Part shown: positions 20,310 through 26,298 of the stretch, piece by piece
Position numbering within the stretch: position 1 is the stretch's first letter
Layout: every line of letters begins with the position of its first letter
DNA from: an uncultured Rhodocyclaceae bacterium
Lineage (GTDB): Bacteria > Pseudomonadota > Gammaproteobacteria > Burkholderiales > Rhodocyclaceae
DNA: 64,000 bases
Assembly (NCBI GenBank): GCA_907163225.1
Contig: OU015322.1
Span: 3,253,501 to 3,317,500 of the forward strand
Reading direction: 5' to 3'
The notes under the pieces: model-generated
Told to the model about the DNA's origin: nothing
What the model saw: only the letters and a program-made list of their open reading frames with translations
Databases searched by the model: none
Program-made: the position numbers and the translations under genes

Positions 20310-20956
20310 TCAGGCCACGCGCTCTTCTTGCCGCGCCTGTTCCCAGGCGTGAATCGCCTGCTTCCGCGTTATGCCCCAGTGGTAGCCGCCCAGTTCTCCG
20401 CTCTGCTGGATGACGCGGTGGCAGGGGATGAGAAACGCCACGGGGTTGGCGCCAACCGCCTGGCCGACGGCCCGCGCCGAATGCGGACGGCCTACCGCCG
20501 CCGCCACCTGCGCATAGCTGGCGACCGAAGCCGGACTGATCTGCAGCAAGGCCTTCCAGACGCTGACCTGAAAGTTGGTGCCGGAAACATGCAAGGAGAT
20601 TGGCGCCGTGCCATTGCTCCCCACTTCTCCGCCAAACATGGCATTGATGACCGCCAATGACTGGACTCGATCTTCAAGCAGTTCGGCATGTGGCCACTGA
20701 TTGCGCAACTCAGCCAGCGGCGCCGCGATTTCGCCATCATCCACAAACGAAAATTTGCAGATGCCTTTTTTCGTGATGGCAATAAACGCCTTGCCGAAAG
20801 GCGTGTCGTGCACCGCAAACCGGATGCGCAGGCCGGCGCCTTTTGCCTTGAATTCGCCCGGCGTCACCGCCTCAAGATGAATGAAATGGTCGTACAGGCG
20901 CGACGCACTGCTCAAACCGAGCGTGTCCGACACTTCAAGCAGGGGCTTCGCCTCGC
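20310..20956 (-). pseudogene. ada-like gene, 3' fragment (methyltransferase domain), split by a mobile element
   Basis: This is the C-terminal 70% of an Ada-type fusion whose N-terminus lies at 26088-26298. It keeps the end of the AraC-type helix-turn-helix (LGLSSASRLYDHF...TPGEFK) and the whole alkyltransferase domain with the acceptor-cysteine motif PCHRV. A GTG at 20933 might still allow a free-standing methyltransferase of 207 residues. Codons show no decay, so the break looks recent. Joining both parts over one copy of CCTCGC restores 283 codons in frame. Confidence 0.88.
20951..20956. repeat. Target-site duplication, left copy
   Basis: CCTCGC, identical to 26088-26093; the two bracket the inserted element exactly. 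Confidence 0.85.
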
Positions 20957-21003
20957 TGCAGAATATCCATCCAGTTGACCACCCAAACCTATCCGACCTG
21001 ACC
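20957..21003 (+). repeat. Terminal inverted repeat, istB-side end
   Basis: Starts TGCAGAATATCC; contains GACCACCCAA and then ATCCGACCTGACC. Pairs with 26041-26087 in inverted orientation with one single-base gap. The subterminal motif GGTCAGGTYGGAT also occurs at 26018-26030, in the multi-repeat style of IS21 ends. Confidence 0.82.
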
Positions 21004-21019
21004 GGGCAATCTCACCAGA

Positions 21020-21244
21020 TCACTGATTTCGAGCAACTGACCATCCTGCCGAAACGAGGTGGTAATCTGAGGCTACCGGAATCAGCTTTTCTTCGCCCGC
21101 ACCCTTCCGCATCGATTCTCCCTTCAGTTCCATAAAATGCGCCCGACGCACAATCCGATCCAGGATGGCATCTGCGACGCTCGGATCGTTGAACAGGTCA
21201 TGGATGACCATCCAGCTCCTGGATTCCCCCCAATGGACCTGCAT
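21020..21244 (-). pseudogene. istB remnant (C-terminal end of the IS21 helper ATPase)
   Basis: The translation has the conserved IstB tail: DPSVADAILDRIVRRAH followed by ELKGESMRK. Everything upstream (Walker motifs) is gone. It points toward the adjacent element end, as istB does in complete IS21 elements. In the same frame it is fused to the NERD scrap upstream, giving a chimeric 151-codon ORF that is probably meaningless. Confidence 0.75.
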
Positions 21245-21257
21245 TCTCGTGGGCGGG

Positions 21258-21403
21258 AACTCCTCGCCGCGGATGCCGGCCTGGATGTTGCGGATCTCCT
21301 GTTTGATGCGCTTCCTGGTATCGGTATTGCAGTCAGGGCGGGACAATAGGGCTTGCAGGGCTTGTCTCGCGGATTTCTTATCGTCGGCATCTTTGATGAT
21401 CAT
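21258..21403 (-). pseudogene. NERD-domain protein, N-terminal scrap
   Basis: About 48 residues (MIIKDADDKKSARQALQ...DTRKRIKQEIRNIQAG) match the start of a family of nuclease-related-domain proteins, then homology stops at the junction with the istB remnant. The ATG at 21403 is intact but the catalytic region is missing. Confidence 0.6.
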
Positions 21404-21554
21404 CGTGCCAACAGGTGGCTTCTCAACCGCTCGAAAGCGTAGCCCGCCCCATGGGCTCAAGCATCCCCCTTGCAAGCGTCATTTTGCCGCCCAAGGGCGA
21501 TTCGAGACGGTCAAGTCGAGCAATCCTGATCAACAGAATACAATCTGGCATGGG

Positions 21555-22496
21555 TCAGCGGAAATGGCGTTTAACGACCGAAGGCGGAACACCTTTGAGG
21601 CGGATAAAGGCACGCCGCATTCGCTCTACGTCCGTGAAGCCACATTGGCGCGCTACAACCTGTACCGAGCCGTTGCCGCTTTCTAATGCGGCGCTCGCAG
21701 CCTCGACTCTTAGCCGCTCAACGGCCCGGGCCGGGGTTGTGCCGATCTCTGAAGCGAAGCATCGGGCGAAATGCCTTGGACTCATGCACGCCTGATCCGC
21801 GAGGTCGCCGACCGAGAGCGGTTTGTCCAGATTGCTGCGGATGTAATCGAGTAGACCAGCGAAGCGACCATCGCCCATGCCCATTTCCAGCAATGCGGAA
21901 TACTGGGATTGCCCGCCTGGGCGACGGTAATAAACCACAAGTTGGTGGGCAACGTGACGAGCGATCTGCTCTCCGAGGTCATCGGCGATCAAGGCTAAAG
22001 AAAGATCGATGCCCGCACTAATTCCCGCCGAGGTCCATAGATTACCGTCATTGACATAGATACGGTTCTCATCGAGGAACACGTTGGGAAATCGGCGTCT
22101 GAAGTCGGCGCTACGCCGCCAGTGTGTTGTCGCCTTCCGTCCATTGAGCAACCCAGCTGAGGCGAGCAGGTAGGCTCCGGAACACACGCTCGCCATGCGC
22201 CGCGCTTTCTGCGACAGATCGCGGATGAAGGCAAGCACCTCTGCCGAGGCCGTAGCTTCAATGACACCCTCGCCACCAACAGCGATTACGGTATCCGCAT
22301 CGAACACTTGGGCGAACGGCATGGTGAGCAGCGTAGTACCGGCCGAACTTTCCACCGTACCGCCTTCCTGGCTGACCAAAATCAGTTCATATGTTGTCGA
22401 TTCCATCCGGTTGGCCATCTCGAAAGCAGCAATCGGACCGGCCACATCCAACAATTGAAAATCAGGGAATACGACGAAAACCAGCTTGTGTGCCAT
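21555..22496 (-). CDS. GlxA-family transcriptional regulator (DJ-1/PfpI + AraC HTH)
   Basis: 313 residues. Residues 1-170 form a DJ-1/PfpI-like domain with the nucleophile-elbow sequence VCSGAYLLASAGLL; residues about 215-313 are an AraC/XylS double helix-turn-helix (LADQACMSPRHFARCF, ARQCGFTDVERMRRAF). It is divergent from the isonitrile-synthase-like gene with an 89-bp, AT-richer gap, so it probably controls that operon. Such regulators usually sense small nitrogenous ligands; the ligand here is unknown. Confidence 0.9.
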   Translation of the reverse strand: MAHKLVFVVFPDFQLLDVAGPIAAFEMANRMESTTYELILVSQEGGTVESSAGTTLLTMPFAQVFDADTVIAVGGEGVIEATASAEVLAFIRDLSQKARRMASVCSGAYLLASAGLLNGRKATTHWRRSADFRRRFPNVFLDENRIYVNDGNLWTSAGISAGIDLSLALIADDLGEQIARHVAHQLVVYYRRPGGQSQYSALLEMGMGDGRFAGLLDYIRSNLDKPLSVGDLADQACMSPRHFARCFASEIGTTPARAVERLRVEAASAALESGNGSVQVVARQCGFTDVERMRRAFIRLKGVPPSVVKRHFR

Positions 22497-22585
22497 GGCA
22501 GAAAACGAGGGAACTATGTCTTTTACACTGTAGCCTATCCATGCAATATGTCAATGGCAACTATTCACAACACAAGGAGGAAGCC

Positions 22586-23806
22586 ATGTCGATGTCTGAA
22601 CCGCTGTCTGCACCTGTATCCGCTGCCTACCAGCAGCTTCCGGTAGGATTGAGTGGGGAGATCATTTCTCGGTCCCAGATCGGGCAGGAATTTGTCTGGC
22701 CGAAGAGCGACCCTCGTTCGCAGTGGCAGCCGCAGCGTACCTACGGCCCCAGTGACGATGCCCGGATTCGGCACCTCGGCATCTCACCCCACTTCGACAT
22801 GGATGCGTTTTTGGAGCGAACCCAAACATTTGATTTGCCATCGCGGATCATCGAATTGCTGAACCACAACGCCTTTCAGTTCAATTCACGAAAGAAATTC
22901 CGCGAATGCGACCAGTGGCGGCAGATGGTTATGGAGGCTTGCGAAAAAGGTACTCCAATTGAGATTCTGATCCTCGCGTTCTGCGTAATCAGTAATCCGA
23001 CCAAGCGGGTGCAACCGACCGAGGTGACCACGGCAGATGATGTATCACTACTCCACATAGACAATATTGCTCGCCACATCGCGAACATCTACCCACCGGG
23101 AGCTGTTTTCCATGTGATCAGTGATAGCACCTTCTATGCGCTGCCGCTGGGGGTTACATCAGTCGAAGCTCAGAATTATCTGGTTCAGCTACGTCAGCGT
23201 ACCGAAGACCTGCAGATTGCGGACACCATCAAGATTCACGATATTTCCGACTATCTGTCCCACTATAACCAGTTCTTCCACGAACGGTTCGAGATTTGGC
23301 GCGCCAAGTTCCTTGCCGATCCGCTGTCGCATGATTTGCCTGCGGACGAATACCAGCGCTGGCATGCCAGCATGCGCGCCACGCTCAATTCCCGGCGTAT
23401 GGGATTCTCCTACGAGCAGTTGGCGGCCATTTTCTGTGCCGATTCCGGCATTTCCCTGGCTTACCTCGATGACAGTGCCACTCTGGTGCTGGCCGAGTAC
23501 CGGGCCTTGAAGGCGGCGGCCGCCGATACGAACTGGGAGAAACGCCATTTCCCGAACGCCATTCGGGCTACGATCCACGCTAAGAAAATTCCGGTTTTAG
23601 GTCTTCGCCTGTATCCGGAATACAAGCGGGGCTCCCGTCTCCTCCCTTACTATGGAATCGCAGTCCTGGTGCCAGGCGATAGTGATGGCGCCGAGCGGAT
23701 GGAAATCCGGCACGAGATAACCGTGATCGGTAATCCATCCTTCACCCGGGTGGTCGATGAGAAGGGGCTGACGCAATTCTACGAACCGTCGAAGCCCAGC
23801 ATATGA
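22586..23806 (+). CDS. Divergent DIT1/PvcA-family protein, possible isonitrile (isocyanide) synthase
   Basis: 406 residues from the ATG at 22586, with a strong AAGGAGGAAGCC ribosome-binding site. The order of motifs resembles DIT1/PvcA enzymes: AFCVISNPTKRVQP, then DDVSLLHIDNIARHI, IYPPGAVFHVISD with a following LGV, and late on IRATIHAKK and LPYYGIAVL. PvcA/IsnA enzymes make an isonitrile from the amino group of Trp or Tyr and a carbon of ribulose-5-phosphate. The match is distant; the substrate is unknown and no PvcB-type oxygenase is present. Overlaps the next gene by ATGA. Confidence 0.6.
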   Translation: MSMSEPLSAPVSAAYQQLPVGLSGEIISRSQIGQEFVWPKSDPRSQWQPQRTYGPSDDARIRHLGISPHFDMDAFLERTQTFDLPSRIIELLNHNAFQFNSRKKFRECDQWRQMVMEACEKGTPIEILILAFCVISNPTKRVQPTEVTTADDVSLLHIDNIARHIANIYPPGAVFHVISDSTFYALPLGVTSVEAQNYLVQLRQRTEDLQIADTIKIHDISDYLSHYNQFFHERFEIWRAKFLADPLSHDLPADEYQRWHASMRATLNSRRMGFSYEQLAAIFCADSGISLAYLDDSATLVLAEYRALKAAAADTNWEKRHFPNAIRATIHAKKIPVLGLRLYPEYKRGSRLLPYYGIAVLVPGDSDGAERMEIRHEITVIGNPSFTRVVDEKGLTQFYEPSKPSI

Positions 23807-24975
23807 ACCGCAACATCTTTCTGCTGGCGCTCTCCCAGGCGGCGATGATGACCACGGTCAGTCTCGTGCTTTCATCGTCGGCCCTGGTGGGGGCTCAACT
23901 CTCGTCGCCGGATTTAGCCACCGTGCCACTCGCTGTCCAATACCTGGGGACCATGGTGATGCTTTATCCGGTGGCCAGGCTCATGGAGCGCTTTGGACGC
24001 CGCTTCATCTTCTGTTGCGGAGCCCTGGTCGGTGCAGCGGGCTTGGCATGCGCAGCTTTCGGCGTCCGGATTGGCAGTTTTGCTCTGTTTGCAACGGCTG
24101 GGTTCTTGATCGGCACCTTTGGTGCGGTCGGGCAATACTACCGGTTTGCGGCTGTCGATTCGGTGACTCCGGAAAGAAAAAGCCTGGCTATCTCCTGGAC
24201 GCTGACTGGCGGACTCCTTGCTGCTGTGGCAGGGCCGATGCTCGCTCGGTGGACGAAGGATGCGCTTGAGCCGGCCTTCTACGCCAGCTTTCTTTCATTG
24301 GCGGGCGTGGCGTTGTTGGGCGCCCTGTTCGCGACGGGCCTCAGCTTGCCGCCAATGGAAAGGGCGGAAGACAAGCAAGCGCGGCGATCATTGTCGGAGA
24401 TTGCCCGTAATCCCAAGTTGACCATGGCTATTTTGGGAGGTGTCGTTGGCTATGCCGTGATGAATCTCCTGATGACCGCCACGCCTCTGGCCATGATGTG
24501 TTCACGGCTCGGTTTCTCCCAGACTGCCGTGGTTATTCAATGGCACGTGCTCGCCATGTTTGCCCCTTCATTTTTCACCGGAACCCTCATTCAGAGAATC
24601 GGCACCATACCGGTCATGCTATTGGGCTGTCTCTTGAACCTCGGGAGCATTGCAGTCAGCCTGACTGGGATTGAGTTGGTTCACTTTGAGGCTGCACTGA
24701 TTCTGCTGGGGGTCGGCTGGAATTTTCTCTACATCGGAGCCACTGCTCTGCTGACCGAAAACTGTCGCAAGGAGGAAGCTGCCCGCGTTCAGGCCCTGAA
24801 TGATACGCTCGTCTTTCTGGGCGTCACGACCGCGACCTTACTCTCCGGTGCGATGGTCAATGCGCTGGGATGGCAGACAGTCAATCTGTATGCCGTCTTT
24901 CCGATCCTGCTCGTCGTGGCAGGGCTCGTTCGATTGATGAATCGGCCTCGTCTCTCATGGTTGCGCGCGGGGTGA
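23803..24975 (+). CDS. MFS transporter of the cassette
   Basis: 390 residues with about twelve membrane segments and the MFS loop signature LMERFGRRFIF. It overlaps the isonitrile-synthase-like gene by four bases (ATGA), so the two are translationally coupled. This suggests export of that enzyme's product or uptake of its precursor. Confidence 0.86.
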   Translation: MNRNIFLLALSQAAMMTTVSLVLSSSALVGAQLSSPDLATVPLAVQYLGTMVMLYPVARLMERFGRRFIFCCGALVGAAGLACAAFGVRIGSFALFATAGFLIGTFGAVGQYYRFAAVDSVTPERKSLAISWTLTGGLLAAVAGPMLARWTKDALEPAFYASFLSLAGVALLGALFATGLSLPPMERAEDKQARRSLSEIARNPKLTMAILGGVVGYAVMNLLMTATPLAMMCSRLGFSQTAVVIQWHVLAMFAPSFFTGTLIQRIGTIPVMLLGCLLNLGSIAVSLTGIELVHFEAALILLGVGWNFLYIGATALLTENCRKEEAARVQALNDTLVFLGVTTATLLSGAMVNALGWQTVNLYAVFPILLVVAGLVRLMNRPRLSWLRAG

Positions 24976-25056
24976 TTGATGAAGATCGAGAAACCGCCCA
25001 CCGAAGACTTTGTAGCGCCCCTCTTCACTCCCGATGCTCCGGATGGAGGCAGCGCC

Positions 25057-25743
25057 ATGACCTCCCCGGTAAGAGCTTTGATTTTTGATCTGGATGGCAC
25101 ACTGGTAGATACGCTTGACGGCATCGCGAACGCGATCAACTGCGCGTTGATGCGCCATGGTCTTGCACCGCTGACTATTTCAGAGGTTGCTGATCGTGTA
25201 GGCGAAGGCGGCACGGCCCTGGTGGAATACGCATTGAAGAAAACCGGACACGAAGGCCACTCGGAAAGAGTCGCCCAATTACAGGAAAGTTATTTCCAAG
25301 CTTATCTTTCCGCACCCATCCATGGGACGAGGATTTTTCCGGACGTGATTCCGATGCTGGAACGCGCCGAAGCCCGAAACTTGGATCTTGCCATTTGCAC
25401 CAACAAAGCAGGAGTCCTTGCCGAGGCGGTACTGGAAGGCTTAGGCTTGACTCGATACTTTCGTTTTTTGGTCTATGGTGACTCGTTGCCGTATCGCAAG
25501 CCCCATCCGGGGCCGATTAAGTGGATCGTCGGGCAAATGGGGGTTCCACTAGAGGCCTGTGTCATGGTTGGAGATACCGAAAACGATGTTCTTGCTGCTC
25601 GAAACTCTGGTGTGCGGTCCGTTTTCGTGAGTTTTGGCTACAGCAAATTGGAATCCTTGAGGAGCCAGCCGGATTGGGTTGTTCATCACTTTGATCAACT
25701 GGATCCCATATTGCGTAATTTCGACCGTCAGCGGCATACTTGA
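25057..25743 (+). CDS. HAD-superfamily phosphatase (phosphoglycolate-phosphatase-like)
   Basis: 228 residues from the ATG at 25057, preceded by GGAGGCAGCGCC; a start at 24979 directly after the MFS stop would add 26 unconserved residues. HAD motifs: FDLDGTLVDT (nucleophile Asp), CTNKA, KPHPGPIKW and VGDTENDVLAA. It is the third gene of the cassette operon. Isonitrile synthases consume ribulose-5-phosphate, so a sugar-phosphate-type phosphatase beside one is suggestive, but the link is inference. Confidence 0.88.
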   Translation: MTSPVRALIFDLDGTLVDTLDGIANAINCALMRHGLAPLTISEVADRVGEGGTALVEYALKKTGHEGHSERVAQLQESYFQAYLSAPIHGTRIFPDVIPMLERAEARNLDLAICTNKAGVLAEAVLEGLGLTRYFRFLVYGDSLPYRKPHPGPIKWIVGQMGVPLEACVMVGDTENDVLAARNSGVRSVFVSFGYSKLESLRSQPDWVVHHFDQLDPILRNFDRQRHT

Positions 25744-26040
25744 GAATGAGCCGGAGCATCAAATTTGAACTGAGACGTTCGCGGTTGTGACAACGGTTGT
25801 GCTTCGCAGGTGATGTTGGAACCTGTCCAATTCAGGGAGCGATATCGAGGAGCGACATGCCGTAATAAATAGGGAGACGTGACCATATGACAAATGAGCT
25901 GGAGGTTGGCGCGCTCCGCTTCTTGCTGCCTGGCTCGTTCGGCTTCGCCGAGCCGAGACCACAGGGAAATCGTGACAAATCACGATAGATGTTTCGTAAA
26001 AAAGGCGAAGACAACCTGGTCAGGTTGGATGCGATTGTAT
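25744..26040. other. Non-coding tail of the cassette
   Basis: About 300 bp between the HAD gene and the terminal repeat. No convincing ORF. A subterminal direct-repeat motif GGTCAGGTTGGAT sits at 26018-26030. A small inverted repeat GGCTTCGCCGAGCC is at about 25941. An istA gene would be expected near this end of an IS21 element; none is left. Confidence 0.6.
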
Positions 26041-26087
26041 GGGTCAGATCCGAGAAGATTGGGTGGTCTGTTCAGTGCGGTTCTGCA
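26041..26087 (-). repeat. Terminal inverted repeat, far end
   Basis: Read on the minus strand it starts TGCAGAACCGCACTG and reaches GACCACCCAA one base earlier than the other end; both finish near CTGACC. Confidence 0.82.
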
Positions 26088-26093
26088 CCTCGC
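26088..26093. repeat. Target-site duplication, right copy
   Basis: CCTCGC, identical to 20951-20956. Confidence 0.85.
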
Positions 26094-26298
26094 GCAGCAA
26101 TTGTTTGGCGCGCTCCACCGTCAGCACCTGCAGGAATCGCTTCGGCGTCACACCCGCCCAGCGGCAAAACAGGCGCTGGAAATGAAACGGACTCAAATGC
26201 AGGTGCGCCGCAATTTCTTCCAGCGTCGGCTGTCTGTCGACCCGGCTGGCGATGAAGTCGATGGCGTTTGCGATGCGGTCGTAATCGGTCGTGGGCAT
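26088..26298 (-). pseudogene. ada-like gene, 5' fragment (AraC HTH half)
   Basis: Starts at the ATG at 26298 (MPTTDYDRIANAID). It holds the first half of the AraC-type DNA-binding domain, including LSPFHFQRLFCRWAGVTPK and LTVERAKQLLRE, and then runs into the element, where it would end 16 codons later. The other 70% of the gene is at 20310-20956. Intact relatives are about 280-residue fusions of an AraC HTH and an O6-alkylguanine-DNA alkyltransferase. Confidence 0.88.

What the first reader, a model, noticed from the sequence alone, without database searches (positions are those of the whole stretch)
20951..26093. A transposase-less IS21-like cassette with exact boundaries
Seen directly: identical 6-bp sequences CCTCGC at 20951 and 26088 enclose 5,131 bp whose ends are inverted copies (both start TGCAGAA, share GACCACCCAA and a CTGACC end over about 47 bp). 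A second subterminal motif, GGTCAGGTYGGAT, is also shared by both ends. IS21 elements are known to end TG...CA, to have several terminal repeats and to duplicate 4-8 bp. An istB remnant sits at the expected end. istA is absent, so this looks like a mobile insertion cassette moved in trans.
Basis: partly seen in the sequence, partly recalled or inferred. Interest (0 to 1): 0.9.

Follow-up and report, generated by a model that had tools for sequence, protein, structure and literature searches.

The report
Transposase-less IS21 cargo cassette in ada
A block of four genes has inserted into a DNA-repair-type gene as a piece of mobile DNA that kept the ends of an IS21-type transposon but lost the enzyme that moves it, and similar stripped-down gene carriers turn up in related bacteria.

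Summary
Observation confirmed; interpretation largely supported. Window 20957-26087 (5,131 bp) is bordered by exact 6-bp repeats CCTCGC and inverted, repeat-rich ends. It splits an Ada-like gene; joined flanks give one open frame, and congener G418 has the uninterrupted site. A complete parent-type element exists: G239:C21:39970-50856, a 10,887-bp IS21-family transposon (TSD CCCAGT; IRL, cargo, CI-like repressor, Ner-like gene, istA, istB, IRR), whose termini match the cassette over 234 bp (left, 87%) and about 185 bp (right). Plasmids pECO-dc1b and Rms149 carry similar elements with 6-bp TSDs. The window copy kept only the end of istB. Cargo: GlxA/FtrA-type regulator, distant isonitrile-synthase-like gene, MFS transporter, HAD phosphatase. 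The genome holds no close istA. End-model searches gave eight end pairs in this family; only G239's encloses istA/istB, and three others carry PADLOC defence candidates. Whether this cassette moved in trans or lost its transposase after landing is unsettled; in trans slightly favoured. New variant of a known kind (mobile insertion cassette).

The parts
20951..20956 (.). Target-site duplication CCTCGC, left copy
   Evidence: Sequence; present once in the uninterrupted site of G418
20957..21030 (+). Left terminus, IRR-type end (TGCAGAATATCC..., GACC at offset 20, subterminal repeats)
   Evidence: Alignments A1/A3; R1 match E 1.1e-13 (this end is among those R1 was built from); offset
20966..21199 (-). 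istB 3' remnant plus IRR region, 87% identical to the complete G239 element; one indel near the last istB codons
   Evidence: PF01695 positions 200-232; tblastn E 8e-17
21200..21405 (-). Stretch of unknown origin abutting the istB remnant; 83-84% DNA match in two family genomes (G190, G098); no Pfam family
21555..22496 (-). GlxA/FtrA-type transcriptional regulator (DJ-1/PfpI + AraC HTH)
   Evidence: Pfam; NCBIfam FtrA 222 bits, below its cut-off of 425
22586..23806 (+). Distant isonitrile-synthase-like gene (DIT1_PvcA family)
   Evidence: PF05141 2.9e-15; NCBIfam PvcA 37 bits, cut-off 600; PDB 9dhm, 9dh4, 3e59 at E 1e-7 to 1e-6
23803..24975 (+). MFS transporter
   Evidence: PF07690
24976..25743 (+). 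HAD hydrolase of the phosphoglycolate-phosphatase type
   Evidence: Pfam HAD_2; NCBIfam phosphoglycolate phosphatase hits below their cut-offs
25907..26087 (-). Right terminal region (IRL side) with a palindromic GGCTCGGCGAAGCCGAACGAGCC stretch; shared with the ends in G239 and G109
26009..26087 (-). Right terminus, IRL-type end (TGCAGAACCGCACTG..., GACC at offset 19)
   Evidence: R1 match E 6.9e-17 (this end is among those R1 was built from)
26088..26093 (.). Target-site duplication CCTCGC, right copy
   Evidence: Sequence
20310..20956 (-). 3' part of the split Ada-like gene (O6-methylguanine-DNA methyltransferase domain)
   Evidence: one open frame when flanks are joined
26094..26298 (-). 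5' part of the split Ada-like gene (AraC-type HTH), taking MPTTDYDRIANAID as the start; the mechanical ORF runs further upstream

Best explanation
The stretch is a non-autonomous derivative of a cargo-carrying IS21-family transposon. Shown by sequence: both IS21-type ends, a 6-bp target duplication, an interrupted Ada-like gene, an uninterrupted site in a congener, and a complete relative whose two terminal regions match. Shown: it has no istA and only the 3' end of istB. Inferred: an IstA/IstB pair supplied from elsewhere (in trans) recognised the two ends and moved the 5.1-kb block into the Ada-like gene; with the transposase source gone the block is stranded. Inferred from families only: the payload is a self-contained unit in which a divergently encoded regulator controls an isonitrile-synthase-like enzyme, an exporter and a phosphatase. 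Odds: about 0.88 that this is a transposase-deleted IS21-family cargo element inserted here; about 0.55 that it was already transposase-less when it moved (lowered from a first estimate of 0.6, because the indel in the istB remnant proved to lie only near its last codons).
For: Exact TSD and ends. Joined flanks: one open frame with AraC HTH and methyltransferase parts. Uninterrupted site in G418 over the whole 605-nt query at 75%, with CCTCGC once and no gap at the junction; G416 also spans the junction (nt 273-600, 67%). Complete element G239, 10,887 bp, TSD CCCAGT, with CI-like, Ner-like, istA (518 aa) and istB (246 aa). Left side 87% identical over 234 bp, right side aligning over about 185 bp. 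Related elements with 6-bp TSDs on pECO-dc1b and Rms149. In eight pairs compared (window, G239, pECO-dc1b, Rms149, G062, G141, G240, G172) one end has its GACC-type repeat at offset 19 and the other at 20 (for G239 the aligned GACCACC is used, since the script caught an earlier GACC; in G240 the motif reads GAGC). Other end pairs without istA/istB: two have exact 5-bp duplications (G062, G240) and one a 6-bp duplication with a mismatch (G141); the G240 flanks are continuous in 9 of 39 other congeners.
Against: No close istA is in the genome: the G239 IstA search found none (a miss of its first look, since direct tblastn does detect the one other IS21, a frameshifted remote copy with IstA pieces about 24-40% and IstB about 31-33% identical). 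The in-trans step is therefore not observed. The cassette is single copy. The retained istB tail fits deletion of a once complete element equally well. No second site with this end-plus-cargo combination was found. The end-offset rule does not hold for two pairs: G293's right end is eroded and G070's right end is weak (GACC at offset 14).
Confidence: 0.88

Rival explanations
1. A complete cargo-carrying IS21 transposon inserted in the Ada-like gene and later lost istA and most of istB by a deletion in place, so it never moved as a transposase-less cassette.
For: The istB 3' remnant still abuts IRR in its native place. A stretch of unknown origin at 21200-21405 beside it could mark a deletion/replacement junction. 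A review passage reports deletions next to insertions of an IS21-family member, ISPve1 (PMC9330008, passages).
Against: The TSD is perfect and the two ada halves have no stop in the joined frame, while the short istB remnant carries an indel; but that indel lies near the last codons, so this is weak. Other transposase-less end pairs with cargo of their own exist.
Confidence: 0.38
2. The gene block moved by another route (homologous or illegitimate recombination) and the ends are older, unrelated IS21 scars.
For: Relatives of the cargo lie at 77-90% DNA identity at other loci in Thauera, a Sideroxydans MAG, two Oceanospirillum species and Parazoarcus without recognisable ends.
Against: A perfect TSD flush with both ends, one gene split by the whole unit, and an ungapped uninterrupted site in G418.
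Confidence: 0.03
3. The repeats are chance similarities and there is no element.
For: Border pairs with 6-bp repeats and TG..CA are common in the window (1,922), and some have higher ungapped end identity (up to 25/47 against 17/47).
Against: The complete relative and the uninterrupted site. The end-model hits (E 7e-17 and 1e-13) are partly circular, as R1 contains these two ends.
Confidence: 0.01

Closest known systems
IS21 family (IstA/IstB)
   Same: TG...CA ends with several terminal repeats, short target duplication, istB at the IRR end; related istA/istB in the complete relatives
   Different: The window copy has no istA and only the end of istB; the complete relatives carry cargo between IRL and istA, with CI-like and Ner-like genes in G239 and pECO-dc1b
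Mobile insertion cassettes (MICs; described with IS231 in Bacillus cereus; seen as passages of PMC3281130 and PMC4444841)
   Same: IS-type ends enclosing passenger genes instead of a transposase
   Different: IS21-family ends; the searches listed no IS21-based MIC that I could see; mobilisation not shown here
Transporter IS (tIS; definition seen in a passage of PMC9330008)
   Same: An IS derivative with passenger genes; fits the complete relatives (G239, pECO-dc1b, Rms149)
   Different: The window copy lacks the transposase
IS21-type cargo element on plasmid Rms149 (recalled, not verified: possibly the transposon named Tn1012 by Haines et al. 2005; paper not held)
   Same: Similar ends, 6-bp TSD, cargo, then istA, istB and IRR
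   Different: 20.5 kb, intact istA/istB, other cargo (type I secretion, glycosyltransferase, large calcium-binding protein); the two genes before istA have no Pfam hit, so a CI/Ner switch is not shown there

Membership tests
IS21 family (complete element) | istA transposase gene | tested here: not met
   No istA in the cassette (tblastn best E 0.2)
IS21 family (complete element) | intact istB | tested here: not met
   Only profile positions 200-232 of 238
IS21 family (termini only) | TG...CA ends with multiple subterminal repeats (multiple repeats also stated in passages of PMC10122671) | tested here: met
   6 bp CCTCGC
IS21 family (termini only) | Termini shared with an element that has intact istA/istB | tested here: met
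   G239
Mobile insertion cassette | IS-type ends around passenger genes, no transposase | tested here: met
Mobile insertion cassette | Mobilised in trans by a related transposase | not testable with these tools
   Needs a transposition assay; no close istA found in the genome
Transporter IS / cargo transposon | Passenger genes plus a complete transposase | tested here: not met
   Met by G239, pECO-dc1b, Rms149, not by the window copy
L-tyrosine isonitrile synthase PvcA (cargo gene) | NCBIfam NF045653 cut-off | tested here: not met
   37.3 bits against a cut-off of 600; distant homology only

The most novel reading that the evidence does not exclude
The window cassette belongs to a so far unrecognised population of transposase-less IS21-ended gene cassettes in this bacterial family, each enclosing a small functional unit (metabolic genes or single-gene phage-defence candidates), fed by rare IS21-family cargo transposons, at least some of which control their transposase with a phage-like CI/Ner switch.
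Probability: 0.45. Interest if true: 0.75.

Novelty: new variant of a known kind. Interest (0 to 1): 0.55.

Why it matters
IS21 elements are usually treated as two-gene insertion sequences. Here the family acts as a gene carrier: three complete versions are 9-20 kb long (two of the three with CI-like and Ner-like genes before istA), and stripped versions hold only cargo between recognisable ends. The end model makes such cassettes findable where no transposase gene flags them. Three of the stripped cassettes carry PADLOC defence candidates, which suggests a route by which defence genes could move, though enrichment over background was not tested. A direct test is simple: does a G239-type IstA/IstB pair move a marker bounded by these two ends?

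Tried and rejected
A second copy of the left 544 bp in the own genome: none. A plasmid search with the whole cassette: 48 of 72,556 records matched, none over 80% of the query; the 20 rows listed were short matches in or around the GlxA-regulator part. A first loose regular-expression scan for ends gave noise and was discarded. IS21 copies in G137 (L050) and G112 (L049) share istB similarity but other termini by inspection; set aside. The idea that the G062 insertion site is a hotspot filled by this kind of cassette: 20 regions were fetched, 19 of them from this site (one, from G408, only in part) and one the G240 flank region of G281; the 19 were searched with R2 and gave two weak hits (E 0.0046 in L160, 0.094 in L170); rejected. 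Ends around the cargo relatives in Thauera, Sideroxydans, Oceanospirillum and Parazoarcus: none significant (best E 0.11). R2 over 370 class genomes: the window's own two ends strong, three other genomes weak (E 2e-4 to 9e-4); the first look scores few candidates per genome, so absence is weak evidence. No clear partner end was found for the Citrobacter pPSV, Serratia CP068396, P. frederiksbergensis and P. veronii relatives or for G382; in some the IRL could lie beyond the fetched stretch. G293 and G172 pairs lack a clear TSD and the G070 right end is weak; they are counted as pairs but flagged. One search missed the genome's own remote IS21, which the family model and a direct tblastn do find. 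Literature: seven of ten searches used; their listings showed no IS21-based MIC and no CI/Ner-controlled IS21 cargo transposon that I could recognise. Passages were seen of PMC10122671, PMC4133298, PMC9330008, PMC3281130 and PMC4444841; PMC7765201 had none of the terms. The Rms149 paper is not held, so an earlier description there is possible.
Full report
What is there. CCTCGC stands at 20951-20956 and 26088-26093, and the 5,131 bp between them begin and end with inverted TGCAGAA... termini. Of 1,922 border pairs in the window with TG..CA and an exact 6-bp repeat 1-20 kb apart, only this pair and one sharing its right end have all seven first bases identical; but in ungapped identity over 47 bp this pair (17) is beaten by others (up to 25). 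With gaps the first 60 bp score 18.0 against at most 16.5 in 1,000 shuffles. The repeats alone are moderate evidence.

Insertion is real. The left flank is the methyltransferase part and the right flank the AraC-type HTH part of one Ada-like protein. Joining the flanks with one CCTCGC gives a single open frame. In 60 genomes of the genus, 10 matched the 605-nt joined query, the own one included; of the 59 others, G418 matches it whole at 75%, G416 spans the junction partly (67%), seven match only in short pieces that do not cross it, and 50 do not match. The G418 alignment has no gap at the junction.

The parent kind. A right-end pattern (up to 3 mismatches) occurs in 2 of 394 other family genomes, G109 and G239. 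G239 carries a complete element: C21:39970-50856, 10,887 bp, TSD CCCAGT. From IRL it holds a MacB-type permease, an ABC ATPase, an HlyD-type fusion protein and an outer-membrane efflux protein, further genes, a CI-like repressor on the opposite strand, a Ner-like gene (HTH_35), istA (518 aa), istB (246 aa) and IRR. Its istB 3' part and IRR are 87% identical to window 20966-21199, and about 185 bp of its IRL side align with the window's right side. Of 390 family genomes searched with its istA-istB-IRR DNA, five matched at E <= 1e-20 and only G239 over the full length. E. coli plasmid pECO-dc1b has the same layout (9,358 bp, TSD GCTGGC, nickel/cobalt-efflux cargo by its annotation). P. aeruginosa Rms149 has a related element (record 10243-30753, 20,511 bp, TSD GCGCCT, type I secretion cargo), but the two genes before its istA have no Pfam hit and no match to the CI-like or Ner-like proteins of the others. 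IstA of pECO-dc1b and Rms149 are 66% and 48% identical to G239's; pECO CI-like and Ner-like are 61% and 75% identical to G239's.

Anatomy of the ends. Aligned ends show TGCxxAAT, then GACCA, then two further TGACC-type repeats about 24 bp apart. In eight pairs (window, G239, pECO-dc1b, Rms149, G062, G141, G240, G172) one end has the first GACC-type repeat at offset 19 (IRL type) and the other at 20 (IRR type) (G239 by the aligned GACCACC; G240 reads GAGC). G293 (right end eroded) and G070 (right end weak, offset 14) were left out of this count.

What the window copy lost. It has no istA (best tblastn E 0.2) and only the last part of istB, with an indel near the last codons. Next to it lies a stretch of about 206 bp of unknown origin. 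The own genome offers no close transposase: the one other istA found is broken into two frames, its pieces about 24-40% identical to the queries, with an IstB about 31-33% identical; the protein search had missed it.

Cargo. A DJ-1/PfpI-AraC regulator, a DIT1_PvcA-family protein far from the characterised tyrosine enzyme, an MFS transporter and a HAD phosphatase. One scan of genome contigs found six related loci: Thauera butanivorans (all four genes), a Sideroxydans MAG (two loci, one cut by the contig end, one without the HAD gene), Oceanospirillum sediminis and O. beijerinckii, and Parazoarcus communis, at 77-90% DNA identity, without significant ends. The cargo seems to travel by more than one route. 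That it makes and exports an isonitrile is inference from families only.

More stripped cassettes. End model R1 matched 21 of 297 family genomes at E <= 0.01, the own one included. Opposite-facing pairs there: the window, G239, G062:C13 (1.9 kb, TSD TCAGC), G141:C1 (8.4 kb, 6-bp TSD with one mismatch), G240:C6 (3.2 kb, TSD GTAGC), G293:C26 (about 2.3 kb, no clear TSD); after unfiltered search of fetched loci also G172:C5 (2.0 kb, no clear TSD) and G070:C20 (2.9 kb, right end weak). Of these eight only G239 has istA/istB: six IstA/IstB queries gave no tblastn hit at E <= 1e-4 in the six others fetched, and the window has only the istB tail. The joined G240 flanks match continuously in 9 of 39 other congeners (eight strong, G422 weak), with a small length difference near the junction in the one aligned, G281. 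PADLOC (18 proteins in all): G062 291 aa = PDC-S14 (343 bits), G240 299 aa = PDC-S32 (99 bits; AbiJ_NTD4 in Pfam), G070 839 aa = PDC-S28 (1,057 bits); none for G293's two proteins, for the second G062 protein or for two further G240 proteins; a weak restriction-enzyme hit (20 bits) for G172's 577-aa protein; nothing for the window's synthase and 17 bits for its HAD protein. G141's cargo (TctA, a hydrolase) and the window's regulator and MFS were not scanned with PADLOC. Whether three of seven exceeds background was not tested. Unpaired end hits (such as G109, G264, G043) were not counted as cassettes.

In trans or deleted later? The TSD and the ada halves are undamaged and the istB tail carries an indel, but only near its end; this is weak.

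Known or new. Transposase-less IS-ended cassettes are an established idea (MICs; passages of PMC3281130 and PMC4444841), as are IS with passenger genes (passage of PMC9330008). Searches listed no IS21-based case that I could recognise. The Rms149 element may have been named before (Tn1012, recalled, unverified). Hence: new variant of a known kind.

Noticed in passing
L129 1407-3312, L131 1203-4380, L135 953-3838: Three transposase-less IS21-ended cassettes in other genomes carry PADLOC phage-defence candidates PDC-S14, PDC-S32 and PDC-S28; the right end of L135 is weak.
   Followed up: partly
G062:C13:58606-61116 and loci L157-L174, L176: The flanks of the G062 cassette (a hemerythrin-domain gene and an ADP-ribosylglycohydrolase gene) are separated by about 0.15 to 24 kb in many congeners: a variable site, not filled by this end family in the 19 regions examined.
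   Followed up: partly
L006 7905-8309 and L007 7962-8471: In Parazoarcus communis and Oceanospirillum beijerinckii the isonitrile-synthase-like gene lacks about 0.8-0.9 kb of its middle while the neighbouring regulator and MFS genes stay open.
   Followed up: no
window 25907-25967: The palindromic GGCTCGGCGAAGCCGAACGAGCC stretch beside the right end also occurs at other places in family genomes (G112, G062, G177, G135, G078), where one search lists no end, and beside the cargo in Parazoarcus.
   Followed up: partly
phages collection, hits H66-H73: IstA relatives (about 36-47% identical to pECO-dc1b IstA) are encoded in Escherichia phages PhiR12, Acidithiobacillus phage AcaML1 and an unnamed phage record, so IS21-type transposases also sit in phage genomes.
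   Followed up: no
G000:C1:1457215-1458112 (L098): The only other IS21 found in the genome has a frameshifted istA and a remote istB, with IS66-like genes next to it (the latter named from translations).
   Followed up: partly
L138 2637-3458: Just outside the right end of the G172 cassette lies a gene matching PADLOC candidate PDC-S64 (87 bits).
   Followed up: no
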